DNA from: Pseudactinotalea terrae | GTDB taxonomy: Bacteria > Actinomycetota > Actinomycetes > Actinomycetales > Beutenbergiaceae | Assembly (NCBI RefSeq): GCF_009733845.1 | Contig: NZ_WNXZ01000003.1 | Span: 496,001 to 560,000 of the forward strand | Reading direction: 5' to 3' | Length of the DNA stretch: 64,000 nucleotides | Position numbers and translations under genes: made by a program | Notes under the pieces: generated by a model | Database searches by the model: none | The model's input: only the letters and a program-made list of their open reading frames with translations | Told to the model about the DNA's origin: nothing | Shown: piece by piece, positions 52,844 to 64,000 of the stretch | Numbering within the stretch: position 1 is the first letter of the stretch | Layout of the letters: the number at the start of each line of letters is the position of its first letter

Positions 52844-53704
52844 ATGGTGTCCTCCGAGGAGTCTGTGCTGGACGTGCTCATGCGGCATCCGGTCGCGGAG
52901 TGGGTCCGCCGCAGGCTCGAGGCGGACCCGGCGGCCGGGCCGGGGGATCGTGACGAGTACTTCGACAACTGCACCGACGACGGCATCGCGCGCTGGCGCG
53001 AGGACTTCTTCACGCGCGGGGCGCGGCGGCTGCCGTTCAAGGGCCGAGCCGAGCCCGTTCCGATCGAGGAGAAGACCCACGTCTGCATGCACAACACCGC
53101 GGCCCGGTTCGGCACCGCCCGCTACCAGCGGCGGCCATGGGAGCGGCGCCTCGACGCCGGTGAGCTGCCCGCCGAGCTGGCGGCTCGGTACGGCCTCGCC
53201 GAGCTGGGCCGGGATGCAACCGCGGCGCGGCTCGCGCTGCACGCACGGTTCTGGACGGTCGCCTACCACTGGGTGGTGCTGCGCAACGGCGACGTGCTGT
53301 ACAACAATGAGCCGACGCGCTACACCTTCCACGGCAACGGTGCCAACGCAGCGGCGATCGGGGTGTCCATGGAGGGCATGCTGCCGGCGCGGGAACGAGA
53401 CCGACGCGCTTCTCACGACGCGGCTGACGAGGCGTTCGTCGCGCGGGGTCAGCGGCTGCTGCGGCTGGCTGTGGCGACGACCCGCGCTGCCGGTGCGCCG
53501 CTGACGCACATCACCGCGCACCGGTGCTTCTCGCCCGACCGCCGGGGCGACCCGGGTGAGGCGGCCTGGCGGCAGGTGGTGGTGCCACTGCTCGACGAGC
53601 TCGGGCTCGAGGTCGACTACGGCTTCGCGGAGGCCGGCGGCCGCCCGATCCCGACCGACTGGGACGACAGCGCGACGCACGACTGGGCGGGTCGCGAGGC
53701 CTGA
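52844..53704 (+). CDS. N-acetylmuramoyl-L-alanine amidase-like protein
   Basis: A 286-residue protein of the amidase_2/PGRP-like fold: HVCMHNTAARFG (possible zinc His), AYHWVVLRNGDVLYNNEP, then THITAHRCFSPDRRGDPGEAAWRQVV (second His region). It should cut the amide bond between MurNAc and the peptide of cell wall. There is no signal peptide, so it would need lysis, a holin or another exporter. ATG 52844 follows GAGGAGAGGGAACG. A membrane protein gene follows after 5 bases. It is convergent with the eCIS operon. Confidence 0.7.
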   Translation: MVSSEESVLDVLMRHPVAEWVRRRLEADPAAGPGDRDEYFDNCTDDGIARWREDFFTRGARRLPFKGRAEPVPIEEKTHVCMHNTAARFGTARYQRRPWERRLDAGELPAELAARYGLAELGRDATAARLALHARFWTVAYHWVVLRNGDVLYNNEPTRYTFHGNGANAAAIGVSMEGMLPARERDRRASHDAADEAFVARGQRLLRLAVATTRAAGAPLTHITAHRCFSPDRRGDPGEAAWRQVVVPLLDELGLEVDYGFAEAGGRPIPTDWDDSATHDWAGREA

Positions 53705-53709
53705 CCGCG

Positions 53710-54441
53710 ATGAGCGTGCCCGAGTCCCCGCTGCGCTCGCCGCTGCTGCTCGCCGCACTGATCCTGCTCGCGGTGATGCTCGCTGCCGAGCTCGGTTCGG
53801 CGGCGGTGCTCGCGGGCGCGCCGGTGCCCGGTGTGGTCACCGAGGACCCCGGGGTGCTGGCGGCGCAGCCGCCGGGCCGGGGGATCGGCTACCTCGCGCT
53901 GCTCGACGTGCTGCTGGTGTTCGTGATCGTCCAGTACCTGCTCGCGCTCGTGCTGCCCGGCCGGGTGCAGGGACGGCTGCACGGCATCCTCACGCTGGTG
54001 CTGTCGTTGCTCGTGGCGCTCGCCGCGCTCGGGCTGGCGCTGATCGCGCTGGTCGAGCTGCTGGTCATGGTGTCGCTGTTCTTCTCCGCCCCGTTCGGCA
54101 CGATCGCGTACGTGGCGGTCTGGGGTGGCTTCGCGCGCGCCACCGCTGCCTCGCTGCTCGGGCTGGTCGTGCTGCTCGAGGTGGTGGGGCTGATCCTGCT
54201 GGCGCTCGCGCACCCCCAGCTGCTGGCACGCAAGGGCCTCGTGGTCGTGGCGGTGCTCTCGCTGCTGCTCAAGCTCGTGCTGCTGGTGCTGCACGGTGCG
54301 GTGCCACGGGTGGTGGTCGCGATCACCGACAACATCGGCGCGATCGTCGTCGCCGTGGTCGCGATGGTGGTGGCGATCGTGTTCCTGGTGCTCGCGGTGC
54401 CGTCGATCGTGCGGGTGCTGCGCGTCGACAGGCTGGCGTGA
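53710..54441 (+). CDS. Multi-pass membrane protein, unknown function
   Basis: A 243-residue protein with about six to seven hydrophobic segments (LLLAALILLAVMLAAELGSA, LVFVIVQYLLALVLPG, VLSLLVALAALGLALIALVEL, LGLVVLLEVVGLILLALAHP and more) and hardly any soluble domain. No family was recognised. ATG 53710 follows closely on the amidase-like gene (5 bases), so the two are probably co-expressed; a holin-like or regulatory role is possible but unproven. It is convergent with the eCIS membrane-protein gene, 3 bases away. Confidence 0.65.
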   Translation: MSVPESPLRSPLLLAALILLAVMLAAELGSAAVLAGAPVPGVVTEDPGVLAAQPPGRGIGYLALLDVLLVFVIVQYLLALVLPGRVQGRLHGILTLVLSLLVALAALGLALIALVELLVMVSLFFSAPFGTIAYVAVWGGFARATAASLLGLVVLLEVVGLILLALAHPQLLARKGLVVVAVLSLLLKLVLLVLHGAVPRVVVAITDNIGAIVVAVVAMVVAIVFLVLAVPSIVRVLRVDRLA

Positions 54442-54444
54442 GAA

Positions 54445-54924
54445 TCACCCGCTGGTCACGTCGGTCACCAGCCGGCACTCCGGGGCGCTGCGGAAGGTGA
54501 GCGTGGCGCCGTCGGCCTGGATCGCGATCGACAGCTCGTCACCCTCGGCGAGGGACTCGCTGACGTCGTGGATCTCGACGCCGGCGGCTCCGCAGTCCGT
54601 CAGGCGCACGGTCAGCTGCCGCAGCTCGGGCTGCAGGAACCGTTCGAGGAGCGGTATCGACCAGAACGGCTCGTCGGTCGATGCGGTGCGGATGGTGCAG
54701 CTGCCGAGCAGGCCACCGCTCTGCCCGACCGTGACCGGTTCGCCCGCGAGCGTGCAGCTGCCCGACACCTCCTCGATCCGCAGCGCCCGGCCTGCGACCG
54801 GTGGCTCCCGGTCCTGGTCGTCGATGCTTCCCGCCTCGGGTGCTCGACCGGTCTGGACGACCAGTCCGGCGGCCACCAGCAGGACCAGCAGCAGCGCCAG
54901 CACCACGCCGTGCTCGCGCTTCAT
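54445..54924 (-). CDS. Single-pass membrane protein at the end of the eCIS operon
   Basis: A 159-residue protein with a short cytosolic N-terminus (MKREHG), one membrane segment (VVLALLLVLLVAAGLVV) and an outward beta-rich domain with three cysteines (GSCTLAGEP, GSCTIRT, DCGAAG) plus ECRLVTD at the C-terminus. No family recognised. Its ATG overlaps the stop of the next gene upstream (ATGA). It is the last of three consecutive single-pass membrane proteins read through from the eCIS baseplate genes. Confidence 0.65.
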   Translation of the reverse strand: MKREHGVVLALLLVLLVAAGLVVQTGRAPEAGSIDDQDREPPVAGRALRIEEVSGSCTLAGEPVTVGQSGGLLGSCTIRTASTDEPFWSIPLLERFLQPELRQLTVRLTDCGAAGVEIHDVSESLAEGDELSIAIQADGATLTFRSAPECRLVTDVTSG

Positions 54925-55706
54925 CGCTCCCACAGCTCCACGGACAGCCCGACCGTCGTCGAGGTGACGTCGAGGATCCGCAGCACTGCGACCCGGTCGT
55001 CGTCGACGCCCAGGTCCAGGCACAGCACGCGGCCGTCGATCGGGATCAGGGCGCGCCCCGCGCTGCCGTCCTGGAGCGCGGCCAGGCACGCGGCGCCGTC
55101 CGCGCCGACCGGGCCGGTCGTGACGCCGTCGGGAAAGCCGATGGCCGCGATCAGGCCGAGCTCCCGGATCAGCGTGAGTTCCTCGTCGACGACCTCCACC
55201 GGTTCGGTGTCGGTGAGACGCACGGGGTCGACGAGTGAGCTCGTGCTCCAGCGCGACGACGTCAGGGTGTGCACACCGAAGCCGACACCCAGGCCGAGGA
55301 GAGCGGCTGCCGCGACGATCAGCCAGCGCCGCCACCGCGGTGGCCGCGGGGCCTCGGTCGGGGCGACGACGACGGCCACCGGCGGGCTCACGCCGAACAC
55401 CTCGACACCGCTCGCCTGCGAGGCGAGCCGCAGCTCGAACGGGTACTGACCGGCCGGAGCGCCGAGCGGCAGGTCGATCGTCACCAGGAACTCGTCGGTA
55501 CCGCCCGCCGGGATCGATCGGCCGGGCCGGTCCACCGAGATGGCGTCCGAGCTCGTCCACTCGGCGGGTGTCGGGGCCAGCGCGCTGACCCGGGCGACGA
55601 CGTCGAGCGCCGGCAGGTCGATCGTCCGGACCGCGAACTTCAGCCGGCTGGGCGTCCCCGGGGTGTGCGCGACCGTCGTCTGCTGCGGCTGCACGTCGAT
55701 GCTCAT
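54921..55706 (-). CDS. Membrane-anchored Ig-like domain protein in the eCIS operon
   Basis: A 261-residue protein. Residues ~15-115 look like a CARDB/Ig-like beta domain (IPAGGTDEFLVTIDLPLGAP, AGQYPFELRLASQ). A membrane segment follows (WRRWLIVAAAALLGLGVGFG), then a C-terminal domain with paired cysteines (AACLAALQ, RVLCLDL). Since the N-terminal domain has no signal peptide, it is probably cytosolic with the C-terminus outside. It overlaps both neighbours by 4 bases. Role unknown; an inside-facing Ig-like domain next to the baseplate genes could dock the injection particle. Confidence 0.62.
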   Translation of the reverse strand: MSIDVQPQQTTVAHTPGTPSRLKFAVRTIDLPALDVVARVSALAPTPAEWTSSDAISVDRPGRSIPAGGTDEFLVTIDLPLGAPAGQYPFELRLASQASGVEVFGVSPPVAVVVAPTEAPRPPRWRRWLIVAAAALLGLGVGFGVHTLTSSRWSTSSLVDPVRLTDTEPVEVVDEELTLIRELGLIAAIGFPDGVTTGPVGADGAACLAALQDGSAGRALIPIDGRVLCLDLGVDDDRVAVLRILDVTSTTVGLSVELWER

Positions 55707-56407
55707 GAGACCCTCACCACCGCGATCGTGGGGCGGCCGTCGTCGACGGCGGTGACGAAGACGGCGAACCGAGCGCCGTCCGTGCTCTGCAGGCACGCCA
55801 CCGGTGGGCCGGGCGGCGTGCCCGCGGGCGGCAGCTGCACCTGGGTGCCGACGGCCGGGCAGCCGGCCGGGCCGTCCAGGGCCTGCGCGCCCTCGGCGAT
55901 CGTCAGCGTCGCGGGCGTCCCCGCAGCTCCGGGCACCACGATGATGTCGCGACCCTCGAGCACCACGGTGTCGGGGGTGAAGATGAACGGGCAGAAGACC
56001 GAGATCCCGACGCCGTTCTCGAACGTCCTGGCAGGGTTGGGGAACACGCATCGCGCGCCGAGGTAGATGTAGCCGTTGGTGTCGAGGTCCCACTGGGCCT
56101 GCGCCACGAGGGTCACGGGACCGCCGACGATCGTCGTGACGTCGGCTGCCGGCAGCTCCGAGGCGGCCGGCTCCTCCTCGTCCCCGCCGCCGGTCAGGGC
56201 GACGGCCGCGATGACGCCGGCCGCGACGAGCACGACGACGATGATCGTGATCAGCAGCCATCGCGGTACCCCGGACCGGGCGGTGGGGGCCGCCGCGGCT
56301 GCTGGCTCCACGGGCGCAGCGACGACCTCCGGTGCGGCAGGGGGCGTCGGCGTTGGACCCGGGACGCGATCCGGCGCCGGGTCCGGTGGGGTGGGCGTCG
56401 TGGTCAT
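55703..56407 (-). CDS. Pro-rich, membrane-anchored protein in the eCIS operon
   Basis: A 234-residue protein with a Pro/Thr/Ala-rich N-terminus of ~45 residues, one membrane segment (WLLITIIVVVLVAAGVIAAVAL) and an outer domain with several cysteines (ARCVFPNP, SVFCPFIF, GPAGCPAVG, VACLQST). The layout (disordered inside, TM, Cys-rich outside) resembles actinobacterial Pro-rich membrane regulators. It overlaps its neighbours (ATGA each side). First of the three membrane proteins downstream of the tail-I gene. Confidence 0.62.
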   Translation of the reverse strand: MTTTPTPPDPAPDRVPGPTPTPPAAPEVVAAPVEPAAAAAPTARSGVPRWLLITIIVVVLVAAGVIAAVALTGGGDEEEPAASELPAADVTTIVGGPVTLVAQAQWDLDTNGYIYLGARCVFPNPARTFENGVGISVFCPFIFTPDTVVLEGRDIIVVPGAAGTPATLTIAEGAQALDGPAGCPAVGTQVQLPPAGTPPGPPVACLQSTDGARFAVFVTAVDDGRPTIAVVRVS

Positions 56408-56958
56408 GGCTGCACTCCTGGGTCCGGGCTTGGCGGCTCGTCGGGTGCCGCGGCGACGACGATCTCGGTCGTCACGCACGCAGGCGCCTGGGCGTGCACG
56501 ACGCGCTCGACGACGCCGAGGTGCGGCTGGGCGGCCGCAGGGACGGTCACGACCACGTGGTAGGGCCGCTCCGGCGGGGTGCGGATCTCGAACCCGCGGA
56601 TGCCGGTGGCGAGCTCGAGGAACCCTGTCAGTCCGGTGGCGGTGCCACGCCAGGAGGAGAGGTCGCAGGCGTAGGTCAGCGCGGCGCGCAGGTGCTCGGC
56701 GCCAGGGCCGTACGGTTCGCGGCCCTGCTGCTGCTCGCCCGTGAGCAGCCACTCGGCGTCGAGCCAGCTCGCCAGCGCCGGCAGGTACCGGGACGCGGCG
56801 ATCGAGGGCCGGAAGAACCGGTCGAGATCGGTGAGCACGGCGTCCGGGCGGCGCAGCAGCTCTGCCATCGACCCGATCACGGCGCGCAGCAGCGGGGACG
56901 AGACCGCCGCCCGCTCGAAGGTCTCCGGGAGCATCCGGGTGATGGCGGCCGCGTCCAT
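56404..56958 (-). CDS. eCIS/phage tail protein, tail-I-like baseplate component
   Basis: A 184-residue protein resembling the P2 gpI-like 'phage tail protein domain' family of contractile systems: LDRFFRPSIAASRYLPALASWLDAEW, then GTATGLTGFLELATGIRGFEI. In P2-like and PVC-like particles this protein sits in the baseplate wedge next to the gpJ-like protein. Its ATG shares bases with the stop of the baseplate-J fusion (TGATG), in agreement with the usual J-I gene order. Confidence 0.75.
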   Translation of the reverse strand: MDAAAITRMLPETFERAAVSSPLLRAVIGSMAELLRRPDAVLTDLDRFFRPSIAASRYLPALASWLDAEWLLTGEQQQGREPYGPGAEHLRAALTYACDLSSWRGTATGLTGFLELATGIRGFEIRTPPERPYHVVVTVPAAAQPHLGVVERVVHAQAPACVTTEIVVAAAPDEPPSPDPGVQP

Positions 56959-59456
56959 CACAGGACCTCCACCTCGTGCGAGCCCGAGCAGAACAGCCAC
57001 CCGTCGGGCAGCGTCACCTGCTCGGTGAACTCCTCCGCCGCAGCCGCCTCGTAGCGCTCGTCGGTGGCCGAGTGCCGGTAGACACCGCGGTCGGTCCCCA
57101 CCAGCACCAGGTCCTCCCGGGCGTCGAGGCAGCGCACGGGTTCGAGCAGGAACCCCTCCTCGTCCCGGATCGGCAGGCCGCTGTCGATGCCGGTGCGCAG
57201 CCACCGTTCGCCGTCGGAGCGCTGCTCGAGCGTCAGCACGCCCTGGCTGTAGGAGCCGGCCCGGACCACGCCGTCGACCGCGGCGATCCCCGTGCATCCT
57301 TCACCGGTCCAGCCCTCGCCCACCTGCTCGAACACCGGTTGCGCGGCGTCGCGCAGCATCCGGTAGGGGGCCACGTCGTTCGCCTGGTCCACGGCACCTG
57401 CCCAGAGCACGGTGCCGGTGCCTCGGTACTCGACCGTGAGGACCCGCACGTCGGCGCCCGGCCCCCAGCGCTGGAACGTCTGGGACGCGCCTGCCTGCGC
57501 GGACCCGTAGACCCCGCGCCCGGTCGAGGCCAGTGCCACCTCGGTGGTGCCGCCGCTGCGGCGGTAGGCGACCACGGCGAAGAACCCGAGCTCGGGCTGG
57601 TCGGGCTCGACGACGACCGAGACGGCGGGGACGTCGGGCGCCAGGCCGCTGCGGTAGAGGCCGCGCTCGGTGGCGAGCAGCAGGGTGGGCTGCACGCCGT
57701 CGTCGAGCCAGGCGAGGTCGTGCACACGGAACGGGAAGGTCTGCACCGCCTGCCAGGACTCACCGAGGTCCTGGGAGACGAGGATCGTCGAGGTGCGCTG
57801 GTCGCCGTCGGACCTGATGGTCACCATGGCGACCAGGCCGTGGCGGGCCGGGCCACCCCGGTCGACGTCGCGAGCCGGGTGGGTCCGCACGCACGTGACC
57901 GCGGTCTCGGCCTCGGTGAGCACGAGCGCCTCCCAGCTGTCGCCGTCGTCGCGGCTGCGGAAGACACCCGTGGTGGTGCCCACGAACCAGGTGCGGTCCT
58001 GGTAGCCGTCGCGGGCGATCGAGCGGACCCCGGTGGCGGGGACGTTGTCCACCACCAGCCGCACCCGGCTCACGTGGCTGACGGCCGGCTCGTCGAGCAC
58101 GATGTCGTAGATGTCGGAGGCGAACAGGTCGCGCCCGAACGGCCAGCCGTGCTCGCCCAGCGGGCTGATCGCGCGGTGGAGCCGCTGCACCACACGCTCG
58201 GCGACCGCGTGGGAGTTCTCCTCGGCCCGCACCACCAGCTTCACGCGCGCGGAGACGGTGCGGACGTTCGCCCAGCTCACGATGGTCTCGCTGCCCAGCG
58301 TCTGCCGCAGCCGCAGGTCGCTCTCCACCTCGCGGCGGACCGTCTCGTCCTGGTGGGCGTGCAGCAGCGCGGTGTCCACCCGGGGCTGCTCGATCGTCGG
58401 CACCAGCACGACCTCGACCTCCCCGGGGCGCGCATGCTGCCAGACGGCGGCGCGCGTGATCGCGTGCGCGCGGGCGATCGCCGGGTGGCGGCACGCAGCG
58501 CGCTCGTAGTCCCGCCGCGTCACGCAGCCCGAGGGTGCGTGGATCGCCGCCACGCCGCGCTCGCGGGCGTGCTCCAGCGACTCGGCGGAGGCGCCGCCGG
58601 TCGCAGCCTGCGGATTGGTGACGCTCAGCCCCGGGCGCGCGACGAGCAGCCGCGTGAGGGTGCCCGCCTCGACGTTGCCGGACGCGCCGCCCCCGGTCCA
58701 GTACGAGAGCCGCACCTGGTGGCCTGGGGCCGGGACCGCGGCCGGGTGGCCATCCGCCTCGGCCGGGAACTCGACCAGGCCGGCGGCCCGGTCGACGCCG
58801 ACCGTGCCGCCGGTCTGCGCCGTCGGACCGAACCGCCAGATCCGGAAGCCTCGACCGTCGATCCTCAGGTCGGCCTGGTCCGCGCTCTCGACGGCGACCA
58901 GCAGCTGGTGCGCGCGCGGCGTCGCGGGGTCGGCCGCCTGGAGAGGCACGTGCACCATCGGTGCGTGCCGGGCGACGAACCGCTGGCCGGGCCGCCCGTC
59001 GCCGGTGCCGATCAGCTCGTTCTCGACCCAGCGGGCGTGCACCGCGGGCGCGGTGACGACCAGCTCGCCCGCCGGGATCGTCACGGCGGCGACCGTGGTG
59101 AAGACCGGGGCGTCGCTGCCACCTCCGCCGCTGCCGACCTCGGTGCCGATCGGGATCTCCAGATCCGTCTCGAGCGGCGCCGCGAGCGTGAGCTCGATGC
59201 TCACCTGAGCTGCCACGGGTGGGTCGAGCTGCACCCCGAGGAGGTTGAGCAGCGCGAGGTGCACGTTGCGCGGCACGCGGTTGACCCGGTACGCCAGCGT
59301 GCTCGTCAGGTGCGCGAACACCTCGACCAGCACCATCCCGGGGTCGTTGGGGGAGGTGTCGCTCCAGCTCGGGGCGTGCCGCTGGATCACGGTGCGCGCC
59401 TCCTCGACGAGCTGACCGAAGTCGCGGTCGTCGAGCCTCTCGAAGGGCAGGATCAC
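56958..59456 (-). CDS. Baseplate-J-like wedge protein fused to a BNR-type beta-propeller
   Basis: An 832-residue protein. Residues ~1-480 match the putative baseplate assembly protein family (gpJ/Afp11-12-like): DRDFGQLVEEARTVIQRHAP, SPNDPGMVLVEVFAHLTSTL, TRRDYERAACRHPAIARAHA. Residues ~490-830 are a repeat domain with Asp-box (BNR) motifs SRDDGDSWEAL near 495 and SQDLGESWQAV near 560 and repeated blade-like units (GVFRS, GLYRSG, GVYGSA, GVYRHS). So the wedge carries a sialidase/sortilin-type propeller, which could contact a receptor, sugar or membrane partner. The GTG at 59456 overlaps the gp25 gene's stop. Confidence 0.85.
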   Translation of the reverse strand: MILPFERLDDRDFGQLVEEARTVIQRHAPSWSDTSPNDPGMVLVEVFAHLTSTLAYRVNRVPRNVHLALLNLLGVQLDPPVAAQVSIELTLAAPLETDLEIPIGTEVGSGGGGSDAPVFTTVAAVTIPAGELVVTAPAVHARWVENELIGTGDGRPGQRFVARHAPMVHVPLQAADPATPRAHQLLVAVESADQADLRIDGRGFRIWRFGPTAQTGGTVGVDRAAGLVEFPAEADGHPAAVPAPGHQVRLSYWTGGGASGNVEAGTLTRLLVARPGLSVTNPQAATGGASAESLEHARERGVAAIHAPSGCVTRRDYERAACRHPAIARAHAITRAAVWQHARPGEVEVVLVPTIEQPRVDTALLHAHQDETVRREVESDLRLRQTLGSETIVSWANVRTVSARVKLVVRAEENSHAVAERVVQRLHRAISPLGEHGWPFGRDLFASDIYDIVLDEPAVSHVSRVRLVVDNVPATGVRSIARDGYQDRTWFVGTTTGVFRSRDDGDSWEALVLTEAETAVTCVRTHPARDVDRGGPARHGLVAMVTIRSDGDQRTSTILVSQDLGESWQAVQTFPFRVHDLAWLDDGVQPTLLLATERGLYRSGLAPDVPAVSVVVEPDQPELGFFAVVAYRRSGGTTEVALASTGRGVYGSAQAGASQTFQRWGPGADVRVLTVEYRGTGTVLWAGAVDQANDVAPYRMLRDAAQPVFEQVGEGWTGEGCTGIAAVDGVVRAGSYSQGVLTLEQRSDGERWLRTGIDSGLPIRDEEGFLLEPVRCLDAREDLVLVGTDRGVYRHSATDERYEAAAAEEFTEQVTLPDGWLFCSGSHEVEVL

Positions 59457-59860
59457 GGCTGGTTCCCCCTCAATGGGACGTCGAGCCGCACCTGGTCCGT
59501 CTGTCCGGTCGGCCGGTGCCGGTAGACGACCTGGACCACCAGCACGCCGGCGTCGTCGGGGTCCGCGTCGGCATCGATGCTCAGCAGCTCGGCCTCCGGC
59601 ACCCACCGCGACAGCGCACGCCGTACGTGGTGCATCGCGAGACCGGCTGTGGTGTCGTCGTTGGGGGCGAACGCGAGCTCGCGCAGTCGGCACCCGTAGT
59701 CCGGGCGCATCACCCGTTCGCCCGGCGCCGTGAGCAGCACGAGCAGGATCGCCTGCCGGGTGACCTCGGCACCCTGCCGCATCGCAGCACGCCCGGCGCG
59801 GTCCAGGTGCAGCCCGAGCTGCTCGCTGTCGTCGAGCCCGAAGTGCCAGCCCACGGTCAT
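59453..59860 (-). CDS. gp25-like baseplate wedge protein
   Basis: A 135-residue GPW/gp25-family protein (Afp9-like): AILLVLLTAPGERVMRPDYGCRLRELAF with the conserved GER-x-M-x-P-x-(F/Y)G signature, and DQVRLDVPL at the C-terminus. It joins wedge and hub at the base of the tail. ATG 59860 begins it. It overlaps the baseplate-J gene (GTGA) and follows the small spike-tip candidate by 14 bases. Confidence 0.9.
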   Translation of the reverse strand: MTVGWHFGLDDSEQLGLHLDRAGRAAMRQGAEVTRQAILLVLLTAPGERVMRPDYGCRLRELAFAPNDDTTAGLAMHHVRRALSRWVPEAELLSIDADADPDDAGVLVVQVVYRHRPTGQTDQVRLDVPLRGNQP

Positions 59861-59874
59861 CGCAGCCACCCCTC

Positions 59875-60249
59875 TCACCTGCTGACCCGCAGCGAGTCCT
59901 GGCCTGCACGTGACATCGTCAGGCGGTAGTGGTGCGTCCCCGGCGGGGTGCCGTCGGTGAAGCCCTCGACGTTCTCCAGCACCGCGGGGTGGCCGTCGAC
60001 ACGCACGAAGGCCGAGTGGCCGCGCGGGACCTCGCCGTCGGGCAGCAGCGTCAGGGTCGTCACGCAGGGCGTGACCGCCACGCCGGAGAACGGGCAGCCG
60101 ACGATCTGACGGCCCACCGGGTCGTCGCCGACCAGCATGGGCACGTCGTCGAATCTCACCCACTGCTGCCGTGCCTTCGGTCGCGCGACACCGGGCGGGT
60201 GCGGGCACCCGATCCGCGCGTCGTTCGTGAGCCACCGCAGTCCGGTCAC
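59875..60249 (-). CDS. Small eCIS protein, spike-tip (PAAR-like) candidate
   Basis: A 124-residue protein located between the VgrG-like spike and gp25 genes, where PVC/Afp clusters encode the PAAR-like tip (Afp10). It has Cys/His residues that could bind metal (IGCPHPPG, GCPFSGVAVTPC) and a beta-rich sequence (VRFDDVPMLVGDDPVG). I cannot confirm the PAAR fold, so the call rests mostly on gene order. GTG 60249 overlaps the spike gene's stop (GTGA). Confidence 0.5.
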   Translation of the reverse strand: MTGLRWLTNDARIGCPHPPGVARPKARQQWVRFDDVPMLVGDDPVGRQIVGCPFSGVAVTPCVTTLTLLPDGEVPRGHSAFVRVDGHPAVLENVEGFTDGTPPGTHHYRLTMSRAGQDSLRVSR

Positions 60250-61748
60250 GACGGCACCTCCTCGAACTCGACGGCGGCCGCCCGGATCCGCAGCGTGCGT
60301 CCCGGCGCCTCGATGACCATGTCGCCGGCCGCGTGCAGCTCGAGCGAGTCGGTCGTGAGCCGCAGGCTGCTCCCGCCTCGGTTGCGCAGGTGAACGGTTC
60401 CCGCTGCGTCGTCGAGCCCGAGGAACTGGTGCCGCGAGCTGTGCCACACCTGACGGGTCACGTCGTCGCCCCCGGTGACGCCTACCACGGGACCATCGAG
60501 CCCCAGCACCCCGCCGAGCACCAGGCCGCGGCCCAGGTCACCGCCCGGCAGCAGCACCGCGACCGTGGCGCCGGTGCGCGGTATCGCCACCAGTCCGCGG
60601 TCGGCGTCGCCCCCGGGGACCAGGACGTCGAGCCAGGGACTGAGAGCGTCGTCGTGGGTAGGGAGGCGGACCTGCACCCGGCCCCGCCCCGCCGGGTCCG
60701 CAGCCCCGATGACGACGCCCCGGACGAGCGTGGCCGCGGGCGAGAGGGCGCTCACGCTCGCCGGCGGGGCCGTGCTCAGCCGGCTGATGAGGCCGGTGGC
60801 GCTCCAGCGATGGTCGACGAGGGTGAGGACGCCCAGCGCGATCGGGACGCCGCCGTGGTCGCGGAACTCGCACGTCACACCGGGCATCAGGTCGGGACGA
60901 TCGAGCGCTCGTGCCTCGACGGGCACGGCGAGCGCACGTCCCCGCAGCAGGGCGGCGCTCGCCGCCGCGGTGAGCCCCGCGAGGTCGAGGGCGTCGTGGT
61001 CGAGCAGGAGCTGATGCGTGCCGGCTGGTTCGGTCTCGGGCGTGCTGCCTTGCAGGTCCACCCAGGGAAGCTGCCCGGTGGCCGCGGAGACGTCCGCGGC
61101 CACCTCGGCGGCGCGCTCCAGGTCCCACCCGGAGGCGAGGACGTGCGTGGGCGCCGCCGATGCCGTGACGCCCCGGGTCAGCTCGATCAGCTCGGCACCC
61201 AGGCCCAGCTCGACGACCTCCTCCGACGGCGTCAACGACACCGCGCGTGCGGTCGCCTCGTCCACGCACAGATACGCACCGACCTGCTCGAGGACGGCCC
61301 GGAGGTGGTCGAGGTCGTCGGCGCCGCCCTGATACCCGTGCCGGCGCACCGGGCCGAGATCGACCTCCGAGGCCAGCGTCAGGCCGACGTCGGCGAGGAT
61401 CTCGGTGGCGTGGTCGTGCACGCTCTGGTCGAGGAACGACCGCTGGGAGTGCCGGGCGCGCAGCCGGACGAGCCGGTCCTGAGCGACTATCCGCGTCGCG
61501 ACCACACCGGAGGCGTCGTGGTGCTCGGTGATCGTCACGATCTCGGCGGAGACGCCCGTGGGGGCGCGGTCGTGAGCTGCCATCGAGATCTCGACCGCGG
61601 CACCGAGGCTCGCGTCCGGTGCGCACTCGCTCATCGGGCCGGCCAGCGTGATCTCGATCGTCGTCGGCAACGACAGCATGCGGCGCACGCGCACCTGGGC
61701 GAGCGCCTCGATCGGGGCGCCGTCCAGCAGCACGGAGCAGCCGGTCAC
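60246..61748 (-). CDS. VgrG-like spike protein (Afp8-like)
   Basis: A 500-residue spike protein. The N-terminal part (~1-330) resembles the gp27/phage late-control-D hub domain (LPTTIEITLAGPMSE, DQSVHDHATEILADVGLTL). A gp5-OB domain follows (LVRGVVIGAADPAGRGRVQVRLP, SPWLDVLVPGGDADRGLVAIPRTGATVAVLLPGGD), and then repeats (VHLRNRGGSSLRLTTDSLEL) that form the needle. It mounts on the baseplate and pierces the target. GTG 61748 overlaps the LysM gene's stop. Confidence 0.88.
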   Translation of the reverse strand: MTGCSVLLDGAPIEALAQVRVRRMLSLPTTIEITLAGPMSECAPDASLGAAVEISMAAHDRAPTGVSAEIVTITEHHDASGVVATRIVAQDRLVRLRARHSQRSFLDQSVHDHATEILADVGLTLASEVDLGPVRRHGYQGGADDLDHLRAVLEQVGAYLCVDEATARAVSLTPSEEVVELGLGAELIELTRGVTASAAPTHVLASGWDLERAAEVAADVSAATGQLPWVDLQGSTPETEPAGTHQLLLDHDALDLAGLTAAASAALLRGRALAVPVEARALDRPDLMPGVTCEFRDHGGVPIALGVLTLVDHRWSATGLISRLSTAPPASVSALSPAATLVRGVVIGAADPAGRGRVQVRLPTHDDALSPWLDVLVPGGDADRGLVAIPRTGATVAVLLPGGDLGRGLVLGGVLGLDGPVVGVTGGDDVTRQVWHSSRHQFLGLDDAAGTVHLRNRGGSSLRLTTDSLELHAAGDMVIEAPGRTLRIRAAAVEFEEVPS

Positions 61749-62458
61749 GGTGCACCGCCGGTGCTGAGGACGGTGCCGGCCGCGATCCGCAGCGGGTCCT
61801 CGATGCCGTTGATCTCGCACAGCCGCGGCCACGCAGCCGGGTCGCCCAGGAGCTCGGTCGCGATCAGGTCGACCCGCCCCCCGACGTCGTCTGCCTCGGT
61901 GCCGTCGCCGGTGACCGTGATCGCGGTGGGTCGGTCGAGGCCGGGGATGCCCTGGCTGCTGGGGGTGGTGGCGGGCGCGGTGGACTCAGCGGGGCGGACG
62001 CTGTCGTTGACACGGCGGGCGCGGAGCCGGATCCAGCTGCGCCCTGGCGCCCCGCTGGGTGCGATGTCGTCGAACCGTTCGGCGATGGCCTCGATGACGC
62101 ACAGCAGGCTCCACGCGCGGCCCCAGAGCAGCCAGACGTGCGGCACCTGACGCCGCGCCTTGATCTCGATCGAGTTCTCGCACAGCCGCCAGAGCGGCAG
62201 CGTGAGGGTACGCACGTCGGTCGGCGGTGCCTCGCTGACCACGAGGCCGACGTCGAAGAGGAGGTCGAGCTCGATCTCGGTGCGGCCGCCGCCCGTCGCG
62301 ACCATCGGGGTGTCGGAGAGCCCGGTGGAACCGACCGGAGCGCCGTCGAACGGCAGCTCCAGCAGCCCGGCGGTGCGGCGCAGCGTGATCGTCTCCGGGT
62401 TGAGGAGGCAGGAGACCTGCGCGCCGGTCTTGTCGTCGAGGAACACCGCTCGTTCCAT
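61745..62458 (-). CDS. eCIS LysM-containing baseplate protein (Afp7-like)
   Basis: A 237-residue protein that starts with MERAVFLDDKTGAQVSCLLNPETITLRR, typical of the Afp7/T4 gp53-like CIS protein, and ends in a LysM-like motif (DLIATELLGDPAAWPRLCEINGIEDPLRIAAGTVL). In eCIS it glues the tube to the baseplate. The ATG at 62458 shares a base with the Pro-rich gene's stop. It directly precedes the spike gene, the usual eCIS order. Confidence 0.85.
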   Translation of the reverse strand: MERAVFLDDKTGAQVSCLLNPETITLRRTAGLLELPFDGAPVGSTGLSDTPMVATGGGRTEIELDLLFDVGLVVSEAPPTDVRTLTLPLWRLCENSIEIKARRQVPHVWLLWGRAWSLLCVIEAIAERFDDIAPSGAPGRSWIRLRARRVNDSVRPAESTAPATTPSSQGIPGLDRPTAITVTGDGTEADDVGGRVDLIATELLGDPAAWPRLCEINGIEDPLRIAAGTVLSTGGAP

Positions 62459-63378
62459 CAGCCGACCTCCTGGATCCGCGCGAGATCCGCACGCCAGTCC
62501 GCGAGCCGTCGCTGCAGCCGCGCGGTGCCTGTGGGTGCTGCGGGCGGCAGCTCCGGCCAGTGCGAGGTGGCCGGAACGGCATGCTCGGACGGCCGGGGTT
62601 GTTCCGCGGCGGTCTGGAACCGAGCGGCTGCCGCGTGGCTGCGTGGTGAACCGGGCTCTCGTGGCGCGGCAGTCCCGCCCGAGCGGGAGGTGCTCATCGA
62701 CGCCCGAGGTGGCAGCACCGGGTAGGGAGCGAGCCGCACCGGCGGGGGCTGCGGAGGCGCGGGCTGCGGCGGGCGCAGGGTCGCCGCCCAGGTCGGGGTC
62801 GCGCCGTCGGGGGAGGTAGCGTCGGGTACGTTCGCCGCCAACTCGGCCGGACGCACGCGCGGCAGCGCGGTGCGCCGGCTGCGCTCCGCCGTCGGGACCT
62901 CCGGCGCAGCGGCTGGGCGCGCTGGTGCGGCACCGACCTTCGCCTCGGAGGCACCGCGGGCGGCCGGAACTGCAGCCGGCACGGTCGTCGCGTGCTCCTG
63001 GCTCCGCCACGCGAGGTGTGCGCGGCCCGGCGCGGTGCGCGCATCCGCCGGCGTCTCGTGGCGGCGCCGCGGCCGGTCCGACCGCTGCTCGGCAGGGGGC
63101 GTGCTGGCGAGGCTCGGCTGCCTCGTCGGCCGGGGTGCGGGCATGGCCGGTGCCGGCTCGGTCGCCGCCGCAGCCCCCGGCGGCCGCAGCAGCCCGGGCG
63201 CGTAGGCCGCGACCATCCGCAGCCAGTGCTCCGGGGCGTCGGCCAGGTGCGGTGGCCGCGGGACCTCGGCTGCCGCCGTTCCGGCCACGCGGTCGGCGAG
63301 GCGTTGCAGCGCCGTGGCGGCGGCCAGGACCGCGGCGGCCGCGCGGCGCCGGAGCGCCCTACGTCGTCGGCGCCGCAT
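62458..63378 (-). CDS. Pro/Ala/Arg-rich protein in the eCIS operon, unknown
   Basis: A 306-residue low-complexity protein: a very basic N-terminus (MRRRRRRALRRR), a short helical Ala-rich segment (VLAAATALQRLADRVAG), a long Pro/Arg/Ala-rich middle and a helical end (LQRRLADWRADLARIQEVG). No domain is recognised. It overlaps the tube gene upstream by 20 bases and the LysM gene by one. In this place other clusters encode small linking proteins; it could be a disordered scaffold or cargo-loading factor. Confidence 0.6.
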   Translation of the reverse strand: MRRRRRRALRRRAAAAVLAAATALQRLADRVAGTAAAEVPRPPHLADAPEHWLRMVAAYAPGLLRPPGAAAATEPAPAMPAPRPTRQPSLASTPPAEQRSDRPRRRHETPADARTAPGRAHLAWRSQEHATTVPAAVPAARGASEAKVGAAPARPAAAPEVPTAERSRRTALPRVRPAELAANVPDATSPDGATPTWAATLRPPQPAPPQPPPVRLAPYPVLPPRASMSTSRSGGTAAPREPGSPRSHAAAARFQTAAEQPRPSEHAVPATSHWPELPPAAPTGTARLQRRLADWRADLARIQEVG

Positions 63379-63835
63379 CGAGTGTCAACCCCTCGTGCAC
63401 GAGCGTCAGCCGGGCGATCGCCGCGGCGTTGGACAGCGCGTCCAGCGGCTGCAGCAGTGAGGCGCACGGCCAGGCGCTCGTCAAGTTCCACAGCAGCACC
63501 ACGTCGCTGCCCGTGCTGTCGAGCATCGCGATCGAGACCTCGCGGCGCACGACCTTCCCCGACGTCGCGCTGAGCATCCAGCGCCACATGTCCTGATCGG
63601 TCGTGAGCCCGTAGGAGAGGGTGACGCGGTTGTTGCGCACCCGTCCGGGGAGCTGTCGCACCACCTGGTGAGCACCGGCCTCGCGGTACTCGATCGGTTC
63701 CACCTCGACGCCGAGACCGTCGACGGCGGTGAAGCGCGCCGCGTTGGAGGTGCCGTCGAGCACCAGCTTGAACAGGTAGGCACGGGTCGGCTCGGTCCAG
63801 CTGCCCGGCGCCGCGGTGGCGGGGATCTCCGACAT
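63359..63835 (-). CDS. eCIS/phage-like tail tube protein (gp19 family)
   Basis: A 158-residue T4-gp19/Hcp-like tube protein: TRAYLFKLVLDGTSNAARFTAVDGLGVEVEPIEYREAGAH, then VTLSYGLTTDQDMWRW. Stacked hexamers form the inner tube through which cargo moves. ATG 63835 follows AAGGAG and lies 1 base from the sheath stop. The second tube gene usual in eCIS clusters is not in view and may be to the right. Confidence 0.9.
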   Translation of the reverse strand: MSEIPATAAPGSWTEPTRAYLFKLVLDGTSNAARFTAVDGLGVEVEPIEYREAGAHQVVRQLPGRVRNNRVTLSYGLTTDQDMWRWMLSATSGKVVRREVSIAMLDSTGSDVVLLWNLTSAWPCASLLQPLDALSNAAAIARLTLVHEGLTLDAAPTT

Positions 63836-63836
63836 C

Positions 63837-64000
63837 TCAGACTCCTTCCGTCGTCGACCCCGACGACATGTTCTGGCTGATCTTGATGATCACGAACTCG
63901 GCCGGTTTCACCGGCGCGATGCCGATCAGCGCCGTGAGGTAGCCGGCGTCGATCTCCTCGTCGGGGTTGGTCTCGCGGTCGCACTTGACGAAGAAGGCCT
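63837..64000 (-). CDS. Contractile sheath protein, C-terminal part (cut by the window edge)
   Basis: The last 53 codons are visible: FFVKCDRETNPDEEIDAGYL, then TALIGIAPVKPAEFVIIKI, the hallmark end of contractile tail sheath proteins (Afp2-4/gp18-like). Contraction of the sheath drives the tube out. The rest of the gene lies to the right of the window. It is just upstream of the tube gene in the same operon. Confidence 0.9.
   Translation of the reverse strand, partial: AFFVKCDRETNPDEEIDAGYLTALIGIAPVKPAEFVIIKISQNMSSGSTTEGV

What the first reader, a model, noticed from the sequence alone, without database searches (positions are those of the whole stretch)
54445..56407. Three overlapping single-pass membrane proteins appended to an eCIS operon
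Each overlaps the next by 4 bases and the first overlaps the tail-I gene, so they are produced with the baseplate. They have different soluble domains (Pro-rich, Ig-like, Cys-rich). In Streptomyces the membrane protein CisA links cytosolic contractile particles to the membrane; these three unrelated-looking proteins may be a different membrane-docking or triggering module.
Basis: partly seen in the sequence, partly recalled or inferred. Interest (0 to 1): 0.65.

Follow-up and report, generated by a model that had tools for sequence, protein, structure and literature searches.

The report
Conserved membrane module of contractile injectors
Next to the genes for a bacterial molecular syringe sits a set of membrane proteins that recurs beside the same kind of syringe in very different bacteria, with a constant inner part and swappable outer parts, which suggests that it ties the syringe to the cell membrane and tells it when to fire.

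Summary
Three single-pass membrane genes (A 55703-56407, B 54921-55706, C 54445-54924, minus strand) follow tail-I, each joined to the gene before by a 4-base ATGA overlap. B and C are not local oddities. Among 23 such loci (20 of them in Actinomycetota, Chloroflexota and Proteobacteria) B is found in 20, the six-helix protein in 20, C in 17; 8 of the 12 misses lie on cut contigs. In 16 other-class CIS loci the six-helix protein and C were not found. In 396 Actinomycetota genomes, strong hits to the six-helix protein and to B occur only in the three with this class. A seems specific to this genome. B is a cytoplasmic Ig domain, one helix and a swappable ectodomain (PASTA, lectin, kelch and others). 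Best reading: a membrane docking and envelope-sensing trigger, not homologous to CisA-like proteins. Main rival: B is cargo, because its Ig domain is distantly related to proteins matching the description of Streptomyces Sco4256-4258, reported as effectors. Docking and triggering are inferred, not shown.

The parts
54445..54924 (-). Protein C, 159 aa: N-terminal hydrophobic helix, then a domain with 4 Cys
   Evidence: Profile comparison with the C family built without it: hhalign probability 90.7 percent; missed by the jackknifed HMM at E 1e-3.
54921..55706 (-). Protein B, 261 aa: cytoplasmic Ig-like domain, one helix, ectodomain
   Evidence: Jackknifed HMM E 7.9e-16; AlphaFold2 model.
55356..55706 (-). 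Ig-like (NEW3/MSP/PapD-type) domain of B, residues 1-117
55257..55337 (-). Transmembrane helix of B, residues 124-150
   Evidence: four positive charges in the 15 residues before the hydrophobic core, one in the 15 after.
55703..56407 (-). Protein A, 234 aa: Pro-rich N-terminus, one helix, ectodomain with 4 Cys; no convincing relative found
53710..54441 (+). Six-helix membrane protein (polyTM), 243 aa, tail-to-tail with C
   Evidence: Jackknifed HMM E 1.3e-62; model pLDDT 89, pTM 0.84; CDF/YiiP-like fold, Z 16.6.
56404..56958 (-). Baseplate tail-I protein
   Evidence: Tail_P2_I E 0.0013, just under cut-off; homologues at the same place in other loci.
56958..59456 (-). Baseplate J (Cis11-like) protein with C-terminal BNR extension; marker of this CIS class
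   Evidence: Baseplate_J 3e-12; profile matches solved chain 9gtp_1K over the J part and BNR protein 3b7f over 513-594.
59453..59860 (-). gp25-like baseplate wedge
   Evidence: GPW_gp25 2.9e-18.
59875..60249 (-). Small protein at the position of the PAAR-type tip; no Pfam hit at E 0.1; conserved in the class
60246..61748 (-). VgrG-like hub
   Evidence: Phage_base_V 1.9e-14, Phage_GPD 2.8e-8.
61745..62458 (-). CIS_tube / LysM-type protein (the LysM label is by position and recall)
   Evidence: CIS_tube 5.4e-7.
62458..63378 (-). Pro/Ala-rich protein between tube and LysM-type genes; positional counterpart in the 17 other loci examined
   Evidence: negative coding score.
63359..63835 (-). Inner tube protein
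   Evidence: Phage_T4_gp19 2.6e-30.
63837..64000 (-). 3-prime part of the sheath gene, which continues beyond the window
52844..53704 (+). Amidase_2 protein without a predicted helix, 5 bases upstream of polyTM; membership in the module uncertain
   Evidence: Amidase_2 6.4e-6, no hydrophobic helix.

Best explanation
B, C and the six-helix protein (plus A in this lineage) are the membrane module of a CIS without a recognised tail fibre that works from inside the cell that makes it. The six-helix protein and C form or stabilise a site in the cytoplasmic membrane. B crosses the membrane once: its Ig domain on the inside binds the particle, most likely the baseplate and its J protein, whose added BNR part would be the natural partner; its swappable outer domain is held by the cell wall or another envelope ligand. 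Loss or gain of that ligand, for example on cell-wall damage, would be passed through B to the docked baseplate and start contraction. Shown here: linkage to one CIS class, domain make-up, topology signs, no homology to CisA-like proteins. Inferred: contact with the particle, the role of the BNR part, the triggering step.
For: Linkage: B in 20, polyTM in 20 and C in 17 of 23 J-BNR loci; polyTM and C in 0 of 17 stretches covering 16 other-class CIS loci. Among 396 Actinomycetota genomes only three have strong polyTM hits, the same three with full-length J-BNR; the other 26 J-positive genomes have none; Fisher p 9.7e-8. Two of the three were rows of the search alignment; G400 was not. Gene order varies (tail-to-tail, same strand, upstream), yet linkage persists. 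Topology: more positive charge before than after the helix in 15 of 20 B proteins (3 equal, 2 fewer); even number of Cys after the helix in 19 of 20 B (5 of these with none) and 15 of 16 C (1 with none). B ectodomain hits in Pfam are mostly binding modules: PASTA in 9 of 20, ricin-type lectin, kelch, META. In other classes a CisA-like protein follows tail-I at the same place; CisA is needed for firing and is predicted to touch Cis11 (PMC12237407, abstract, section 7 and passages).
Against: No contact between any of these proteins and a particle was tested. L058 is intact in the stretch held but has only B, and encodes an eCIS_core (DUF4157) protein instead. The C candidates of L057 and L065 are positional only. 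A has no homologue to support a role. Seven of 20 B proteins have one or two Cys before the helix, and in four of them none after it, which does not help the topology argument. One ectodomain (L065) also matches a family named CDtoxinA, overlapping its lectin match. B's Ig domain is related to the double-Ig proteins beside other CIS, whose apparent Streptomyces counterparts behave as cargo-linked effectors: tube lumen mostly empty and no stress-induced death in the triple mutant (PMC10066040, section 11).
Confidence: 0.5

Rival explanations
1. B proteins are effectors loaded in the tube and put into a membrane when the particle fires; the constant N-terminal Ig part is a loading domain and the variable C-terminal part the active part. 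C and polyTM would be chaperone, immunity or membrane site.
For: Profile similarity of B's Ig domain to the first Ig domain of double-Ig/helix/ectodomain proteins near other CIS (hhalign 96.9 percent, E 1.5e-10), one with a ricin-type lectin. Their architecture matches the description of Sco4256-4258: toxic in E. coli, triple mutant has about 85 percent empty lumens and no nisin-induced death (PMC10066040, section 11); Sco4256 detected in purified particles (PMC10020575, passages). Several B copies with like N-termini and different C-termini in one genome (L112) fit polymorphic cargo too. One B ectodomain (L065) matches CDtoxinA beside ricin-type lectin families.
Against: Otherwise the Pfam hits in B ectodomains are binding modules, PASTA above all (all 22 families at E 0.01 are listed there; some kelch-overlapping ones carry enzyme names). 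Toxicity in E. coli is not telling, since full-length CisA is toxic there too (PMC12237407, section 7). The polyTM and C partners were found only with this class.
Confidence: 0.27
2. The module makes a T6SS-like machine that fires outward on contact: B is a membrane-bound stand-in for the tail fibre and recognises a target cell or surface.
For: No tail-fibre gene was recognised in the operon; ectodomains are varied and include lectin, CBM-like (weak) and laminin-G-like folds. Membrane-bound CIS with contact-dependent killing exist in haloarchaea, with a six-helix putative anchor (PMC11566945, passages).
Against: Several hosts named in the record titles (Marinobacterium, Methylomonas, Devosia) are diderm (recall), so the ectodomain would sit in the periplasm, out of reach of another cell. 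Toxin-immunity pairs were not searched for.
Confidence: 0.17
3. The three genes are unrelated to the CIS and merely lie downstream of it.
For: A has no convincing relative elsewhere; B and C are short and divergent.
Against: Linkage across phyla in changing gene orders and absence of strong hits from 393 other genomes.
Confidence: 0.03

Closest known systems
CisA (Sco4242) of the Streptomyces cytoplasmic CIS
   Same: Bitopic, N-terminus inside and C-terminus outside, gene just downstream of the baseplate genes; no tail fibre found in the system.
   Different: The CisA-like protein of L107 has zinc-ribbon hits and a weak F5/8-type-C-like hit; five such proteins show no profile similarity to A, B, C or polyTM (at most 8.3 percent). 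The CisA sequence itself was not compared.
Sco4256-4258 type proteins of Streptomyces class IId CIS
   Same: N-terminal Ig/PapD-like part, one helix, variable C-terminal domain including ricin-type lectin, encoded beside a CIS; Ig domain related to that of B (on proteins matching their description).
   Different: Two Ig domains and a helix near residue 199-238 against one Ig domain and a helix near 100-169 in B; no C or polyTM partner found at the loci examined. The Sco sequences themselves were not compared.
Haloarchaeal T6SS-like CIS with Hbor_38620
   Same: A polytopic six-helix membrane protein linked to one clade of CIS clusters, proposed as anchor (PMC11566945, passages).
   Different: Hbor_38620 is described with a cytoplasmic domain of about 150 residues; polyTM is 243 aa, mostly helices. 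Sequence not held here, so homology is untested.
Thylakoid-anchored CIS of Anabaena
   Same: CIS held in a membrane inside the producing cell (PMC8894136, passages).
   Different: There a helix in the tail-fibre-like protein Cis13 and an extension of Cis12 do the anchoring; here separate proteins carry the helices and no fibre gene was recognised.
Cation diffusion facilitators (YiiP, ZnT)
   Same: Six-helix fold of polyTM: Z 16.6, 190 residues, 3.3 A to YiiP.
   Different: No CDF protein among sequence matches at E up to 10; no cytoplasmic domain; transport residues not compared.

Membership tests
Contractile injection system (eCIS-type) | Sheath, tube, hub, gp25, baseplate J and tail-I genes in one operon | tested here: met
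Contractile injection system (eCIS-type) | Cap protein (Pvc16_N/DUF4255) | tested here: inconclusive
   Pvc16_N found in homologues of two other J-BNR loci; the window genome's gene at that place hits only CarboxypepD_reg and has no BLAST match to the L038 or L039 cap-type genes at E 1e-3.
Contractile injection system (eCIS-type) | Cis15 AAA+ ATPase | tested here: inconclusive
   A full-length match to the Streptomyces-type ATPase of L108 was found only in G307 and G477; G000, G250 and G400 gave only partial AAA matches; none at the J-BNR loci. G400's second CIS also shows none, so divergent forms may be missed.
Contractile injection system (eCIS-type) | Tail fibre (Cis13) | tested here: inconclusive
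   No operon protein scanned resembled one by Pfam; no dedicated Cis13 search was run.
CisA | Sequence homology to CisA-like proteins (zinc-ribbon N-terminus, F5/8-C-like ectodomain) | tested here: not met
   hhalign of A, B, C and of the B, C and polyTM families against five CisA-like proteins: at most 8.3 percent. CisA itself was not at hand.
CisA | Bitopic protein directly downstream of tail-I | tested here: met
   by hydropathy.
CisA | Required for firing | not testable with these tools
   Needs a mutant.
Sco4256-4258 type | N-terminal Ig-like part related to B | tested here: met
   hhalign 96.9 percent, E 1.5e-10 over 86 columns, on proteins matching their published description.
Sco4256-4258 type | Two Ig domains before the helix | tested here: not met
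   B has one; helix at residue 100-169 against 199-238.
Sco4256-4258 type | Needed for filled tube lumen | not testable with these tools
   Needs cryo-ET of a mutant.
Haloarchaeal anchor Hbor_38620 | Sequence homology of the six-helix protein | not testable with these tools
   Record not held under the accession tried.
Cation diffusion facilitator | Six-helix CDF fold | tested here: met
   Z 16.6, 190 aligned, 3.3 A; first non-CDF row Z 6.4 (the tool warns that helical models reach Z 13-14 by common arrangement). Foldseek alone: no E below 0.001.
Cation diffusion facilitator | Metal-binding residues and transport | not tested
   No structural alignment at residue level was made.
Type VI secretion membrane complex (TssJLM) | TssJ, TssL, TssM homologues | tested here: inconclusive
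   Pfam scans of A, B, C and polyTM gave no such hit; no dedicated search was made.

The most novel reading that the evidence does not exclude
A widespread class of CIS, not described in the papers I could search, is held in the producer's own membrane by a dedicated module and gated from outside in: a one-helix receptor with an interchangeable ectodomain (PASTA, lectin, kelch and others) passes the state of the cell envelope straight to a docked contractile machine, with no kinase or second messenger between.
Probability: 0.33. Interest if true: 0.82.

Novelty: new variant of a known kind. Interest (0 to 1): 0.62.

Why it matters
How a contractile machine made in the cytoplasm finds its membrane and knows when to fire is open for CIS without a tail fibre. 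This module gives a compact and genetically separable answer to test: a constant inner domain, one helix and exchangeable outer domains, in hosts that include named isolates (Methylomonas koyamae, Cellulomonas humilata, Devosia sp., Ktedonobacter sp.). It also invites a second look at the reading of Sco4256-4258 relatives as toxins, since in this class the recognised ectodomains are mostly binding modules. If true, the CIS class can be recognised by the J-BNR protein and the six-helix protein.

Tried and rejected
B as a query in viral contigs and J-BNR in viral contigs gave no relatives; polyTM in plasmids gave none. B against 119 relatives of the host found only the own gene and one weak partial match, so single-sequence searches were too weak and profiles were used instead.

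A as a relative of B: only the helix aligns, so A was not placed in the B family. A against CisA-like proteins: 0.2 percent. Weak hits to A in 12 other genomes of 396 (E 1e-5 to 1e-3) cover the Pro/Ala-rich stretch and the helix and were not counted.

B-domain hits in 78 of 396 genomes at E 1e-3: three genomes have E below 1e-30; in the other 75 the best is 4e-10 and most were not looked at. Those near CIS loci (G307, G477, G228, G490) were followed up and led to the double-Ig family. C candidates of L057 and L065 were dropped from the C count (5 and 21 percent). One weak polyTM hit (G263, 19.5 bits, part of the profile) was not counted.

The other-class stretches are partly short (L072 4.2 kb, L108 10 kb, L068 11.7 kb; L041 ends just after tail-I), so absence there is weaker than the genome-wide search.

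One search was meant to include decoys for C: of seven rows, three were real C proteins (L038, L039, L053) and four were true decoys, all at or below 1.7 percent.

A class search around G400 added no new member (1 of 66, G400 itself). No CIS phylogeny was built, so how the class relates to dbeCIS subtypes is not settled.

Literature: searches over the held open-licence library; in the rows listed I saw no paper on this class or on a PASTA- or kelch-bearing membrane protein of a CIS. Lists were capped and subscription papers are mostly not held. PMC8213781, PMC12923769, PMC12210884 and PMC12998442 were seen as passages only.

Full report
What is there. On the minus strand the operon reads sheath (mostly beyond the window), tube, a Pro-rich protein, a CIS_tube/LysM-type protein, a VgrG-like hub, a small protein at the tip position, gp25, baseplate J, tail-I, then A, B and C. 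Upstream, beyond the window, are a cap-type gene and a SARP/BTAD regulator. The cap label rests on position: homologues in two other loci hit Pvc16_N, while the window genome's own protein hits only CarboxypepD_reg and has no BLAST match to the L038 or L039 genes. A, B and C are each joined to the gene before by an ATGA overlap. Facing C, 3 bases away, is a six-helix protein gene (polyTM) on the plus strand, and 5 bases upstream of that an Amidase_2 gene without a predicted helix.

The class. Beyond its J domain the J protein has about 350 residues with weak BNR signals. A profile from three relatives matches the solved J-like chain 9gtp_1K over the J part and a BNR-repeat protein over part of the extension; that the extension is a propeller is inference. 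In 396 Actinomycetota genomes, 29 have a J hit and three match over the full length (G000, G250, G400). One scan of the species genomes with a J-BNR profile gave 27 loci, 21 with a match over the full length or up to a contig end (L046-L066) and 6 with the J part only. L051 is the G250 contig. With the window and G400 (L038 plus L112) that makes 23 J-BNR loci: by record title or phylum search 10 Actinomycetota, 5 Chloroflexota, 5 Proteobacteria, and one each of Desulfococcus, Planctomycetota and Acidobacteriota.

The module. For each locus I rebuilt the B (Ig plus helix), C and polyTM profiles without that locus's own rows and searched its open frames (E 1e-3 at Z 10,000). B: 20 of 23; the misses L054, L060 and L063 are contigs that end inside the operon. 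PolyTM: 20 of 23; L048 and L054 are cut, L058 is a real miss in the stretch held. C: 16 of 23 by HMM; the window's own C was missed and is rescued by profile comparison without itself (90.7 percent), giving 17; of the six misses L048, L054 and L060 are cut, L057 and L065 have only positional candidates, L058 has none. L052 and L053 are close relatives, so not independent. In 17 stretches covering 16 other-class CIS loci polyTM and C were found in 0, and B gave weak hits (E 1e-4 to 1e-7) in 5; some of these stretches are short. Gene order changes between loci: polyTM is tail-to-tail with a supported C within about 10 bases in nine (window, L038, L049-L053, L059, L061), on the same strand in L056, L062, L063 and L064, upstream of the cap gene in L046 and L060; B lies upstream of the cap gene in L059, L061, L064 and L112. 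Linkage that survives such changes speaks for shared function.

Genome-wide specificity. In the same 396 Actinomycetota genomes, polyTM has E below 1e-70 in three genomes, the same three with J-BNR, and one weak partial hit elsewhere. None of the other 26 J-positive genomes has it. B has E below 1e-30 in the same three, and G400 has two further B copies upstream of its cap gene and one broken by a frame shift. The window and G250 were in the search alignments; G400 was not. Fisher exact p for 3 of 3 against 0 of 393 is 9.7e-8. A was found convincingly neither at the other loci nor in the other 395 genomes.

What B is. AlphaFold2 on an alignment of 20 gives a confident Ig-like sandwich (pLDDT 92-97 for residues 1-120), a helix at 124-150 and a poorly modelled ectodomain. 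The sandwich resembles NEW3, PapD-type and MSP domains (best Z about 11, many near-ties, so a common fold). Of 20 B proteins, 9 hit PASTA and single members hit kelch, META, a Cys-rich DUF7107/Dickkopf-like family, weakly CBM_6, and in L065 ricin-type lectin together with a family named CDtoxinA; two more G400 copies carry PASTA with a laminin-G-like domain or further PASTA domains. The window's own ectodomain hit nothing convincing. Positive charges favour an inside N-terminus in 15 of 20 B proteins (3 ties, 2 against). Cys numbers after the helix are even in 19 of 20 B (5 with none) and 15 of 16 C proteins (1 with none), as expected for disulphide-bonded parts outside the cytoplasm; against this, seven B proteins have one or two Cys before the helix, four of them with none after it.

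What polyTM is. The model is good (pLDDT 89, pTM 0.84). Foldseek finds nothing significant, but VIA-align 2 puts cation diffusion facilitators on top with Z 16.6 and the first other protein at Z 6.4; a sequence profile finds no convincing solved relative. A CDF-like fold is therefore likely; transport is not implied.

Relation to known systems. In other classes a bitopic CisA-like protein sits at the place of A-B-C (five loci, four of them right after a called tail-I), and CisA is needed for firing, is N-in/C-out and is predicted to contact Cis11 (PMC12237407: abstract, section 7 and passages read). Profile comparison shows no homology. B's Ig domain is instead related to double-Ig, one-helix proteins with variable ectodomains near other CIS (96.9 percent). 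These match the descriptions of Sco4256-4258, reported as effectors (PMC10066040 section 11; PMC10020575 passages). I compared neither the CisA nor the Sco4256-4258 sequences themselves. Haloarchaeal and thylakoid CIS are anchored by other means (PMC11566945, PMC8894136, passages).

How it may work. Position next to the baseplate, topology signs, swappable binding ectodomains, lack of a recognised fibre gene and the CisA parallel favour a docking and trigger module. PASTA domains, known from recall as muropeptide binders of kinases and PBPs, and diderm hosts (recall from the names), where the ectodomain lies in the periplasm, favour sensing the own envelope over binding another cell. Four loci (L047, L049, L052, L053) encode CHAT proteins by Pfam and L051 one by BLAST with them; L052 and L053 also encode caspase-type C14 proteins. 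That would fit a death programme but is not general. The main rival, B as cargo, rests on published phenotypes of apparent relatives and is not excluded.

Limits. Helix calls rest on hydropathy; a cleaved signal in C was not tested; contacts were not modelled; ATPase absence is inconclusive; the stretches held may miss distant partners; the library holds open-licence papers only.

Noticed in passing
window 62458-63378; between tube and LysM-type genes in L038 and 16 of L046-L066: A mostly Pro-rich open frame of 292-469 aa (the longest in the gap) at the same place in 17 of 17 other J-BNR loci where both flanking genes were called; 16 of 17 and the window share a WPxLP stretch, 10 of 17 an EQRG near the end. 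It could be a short ruler or luminal protein, as no tape measure was recognised.
   Followed up: partly
window 52844-53704 (+): Amidase_2 protein with no predicted helix, 5 bases upstream of the six-helix gene: a possible cell-wall-cutting cargo.
   Followed up: no
L047, L049, L051, L052, L053: CHAT-domain proteins (five of 100 neighbour proteins tallied) and caspase-type C14 proteins (three of 100, two identified in L052 and L053) lie near the CIS.
   Followed up: partly
L108, L109, L110, L111, L041, L045, L067: Bitopic proteins with two Ig-like domains, a helix near residue 199-238 and varied ectodomains near other CIS classes; matching the description of Sco4256-4258.
   Followed up: partly
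L058 (Rhizocola hellebori): J-BNR locus with B but without C or polyTM in the stretch held, and with an eCIS_core (DUF4157) protein downstream: perhaps a released form of the same class.
   Followed up: partly
L112 5085-7790 and L038 7563-8588: G400 has three B copies, two intact with near-identical N-termini and different ectodomains, one broken by a frame shift, possibly an assembly error.
   Followed up: partly
L004, about 1934-2233 (65933-66232 in window numbering): A 99-aa plus-strand open frame with a hydrophobic stretch lies in the gap between the cap-type gene and the SARP regulator; weak coding score.
   Followed up: no
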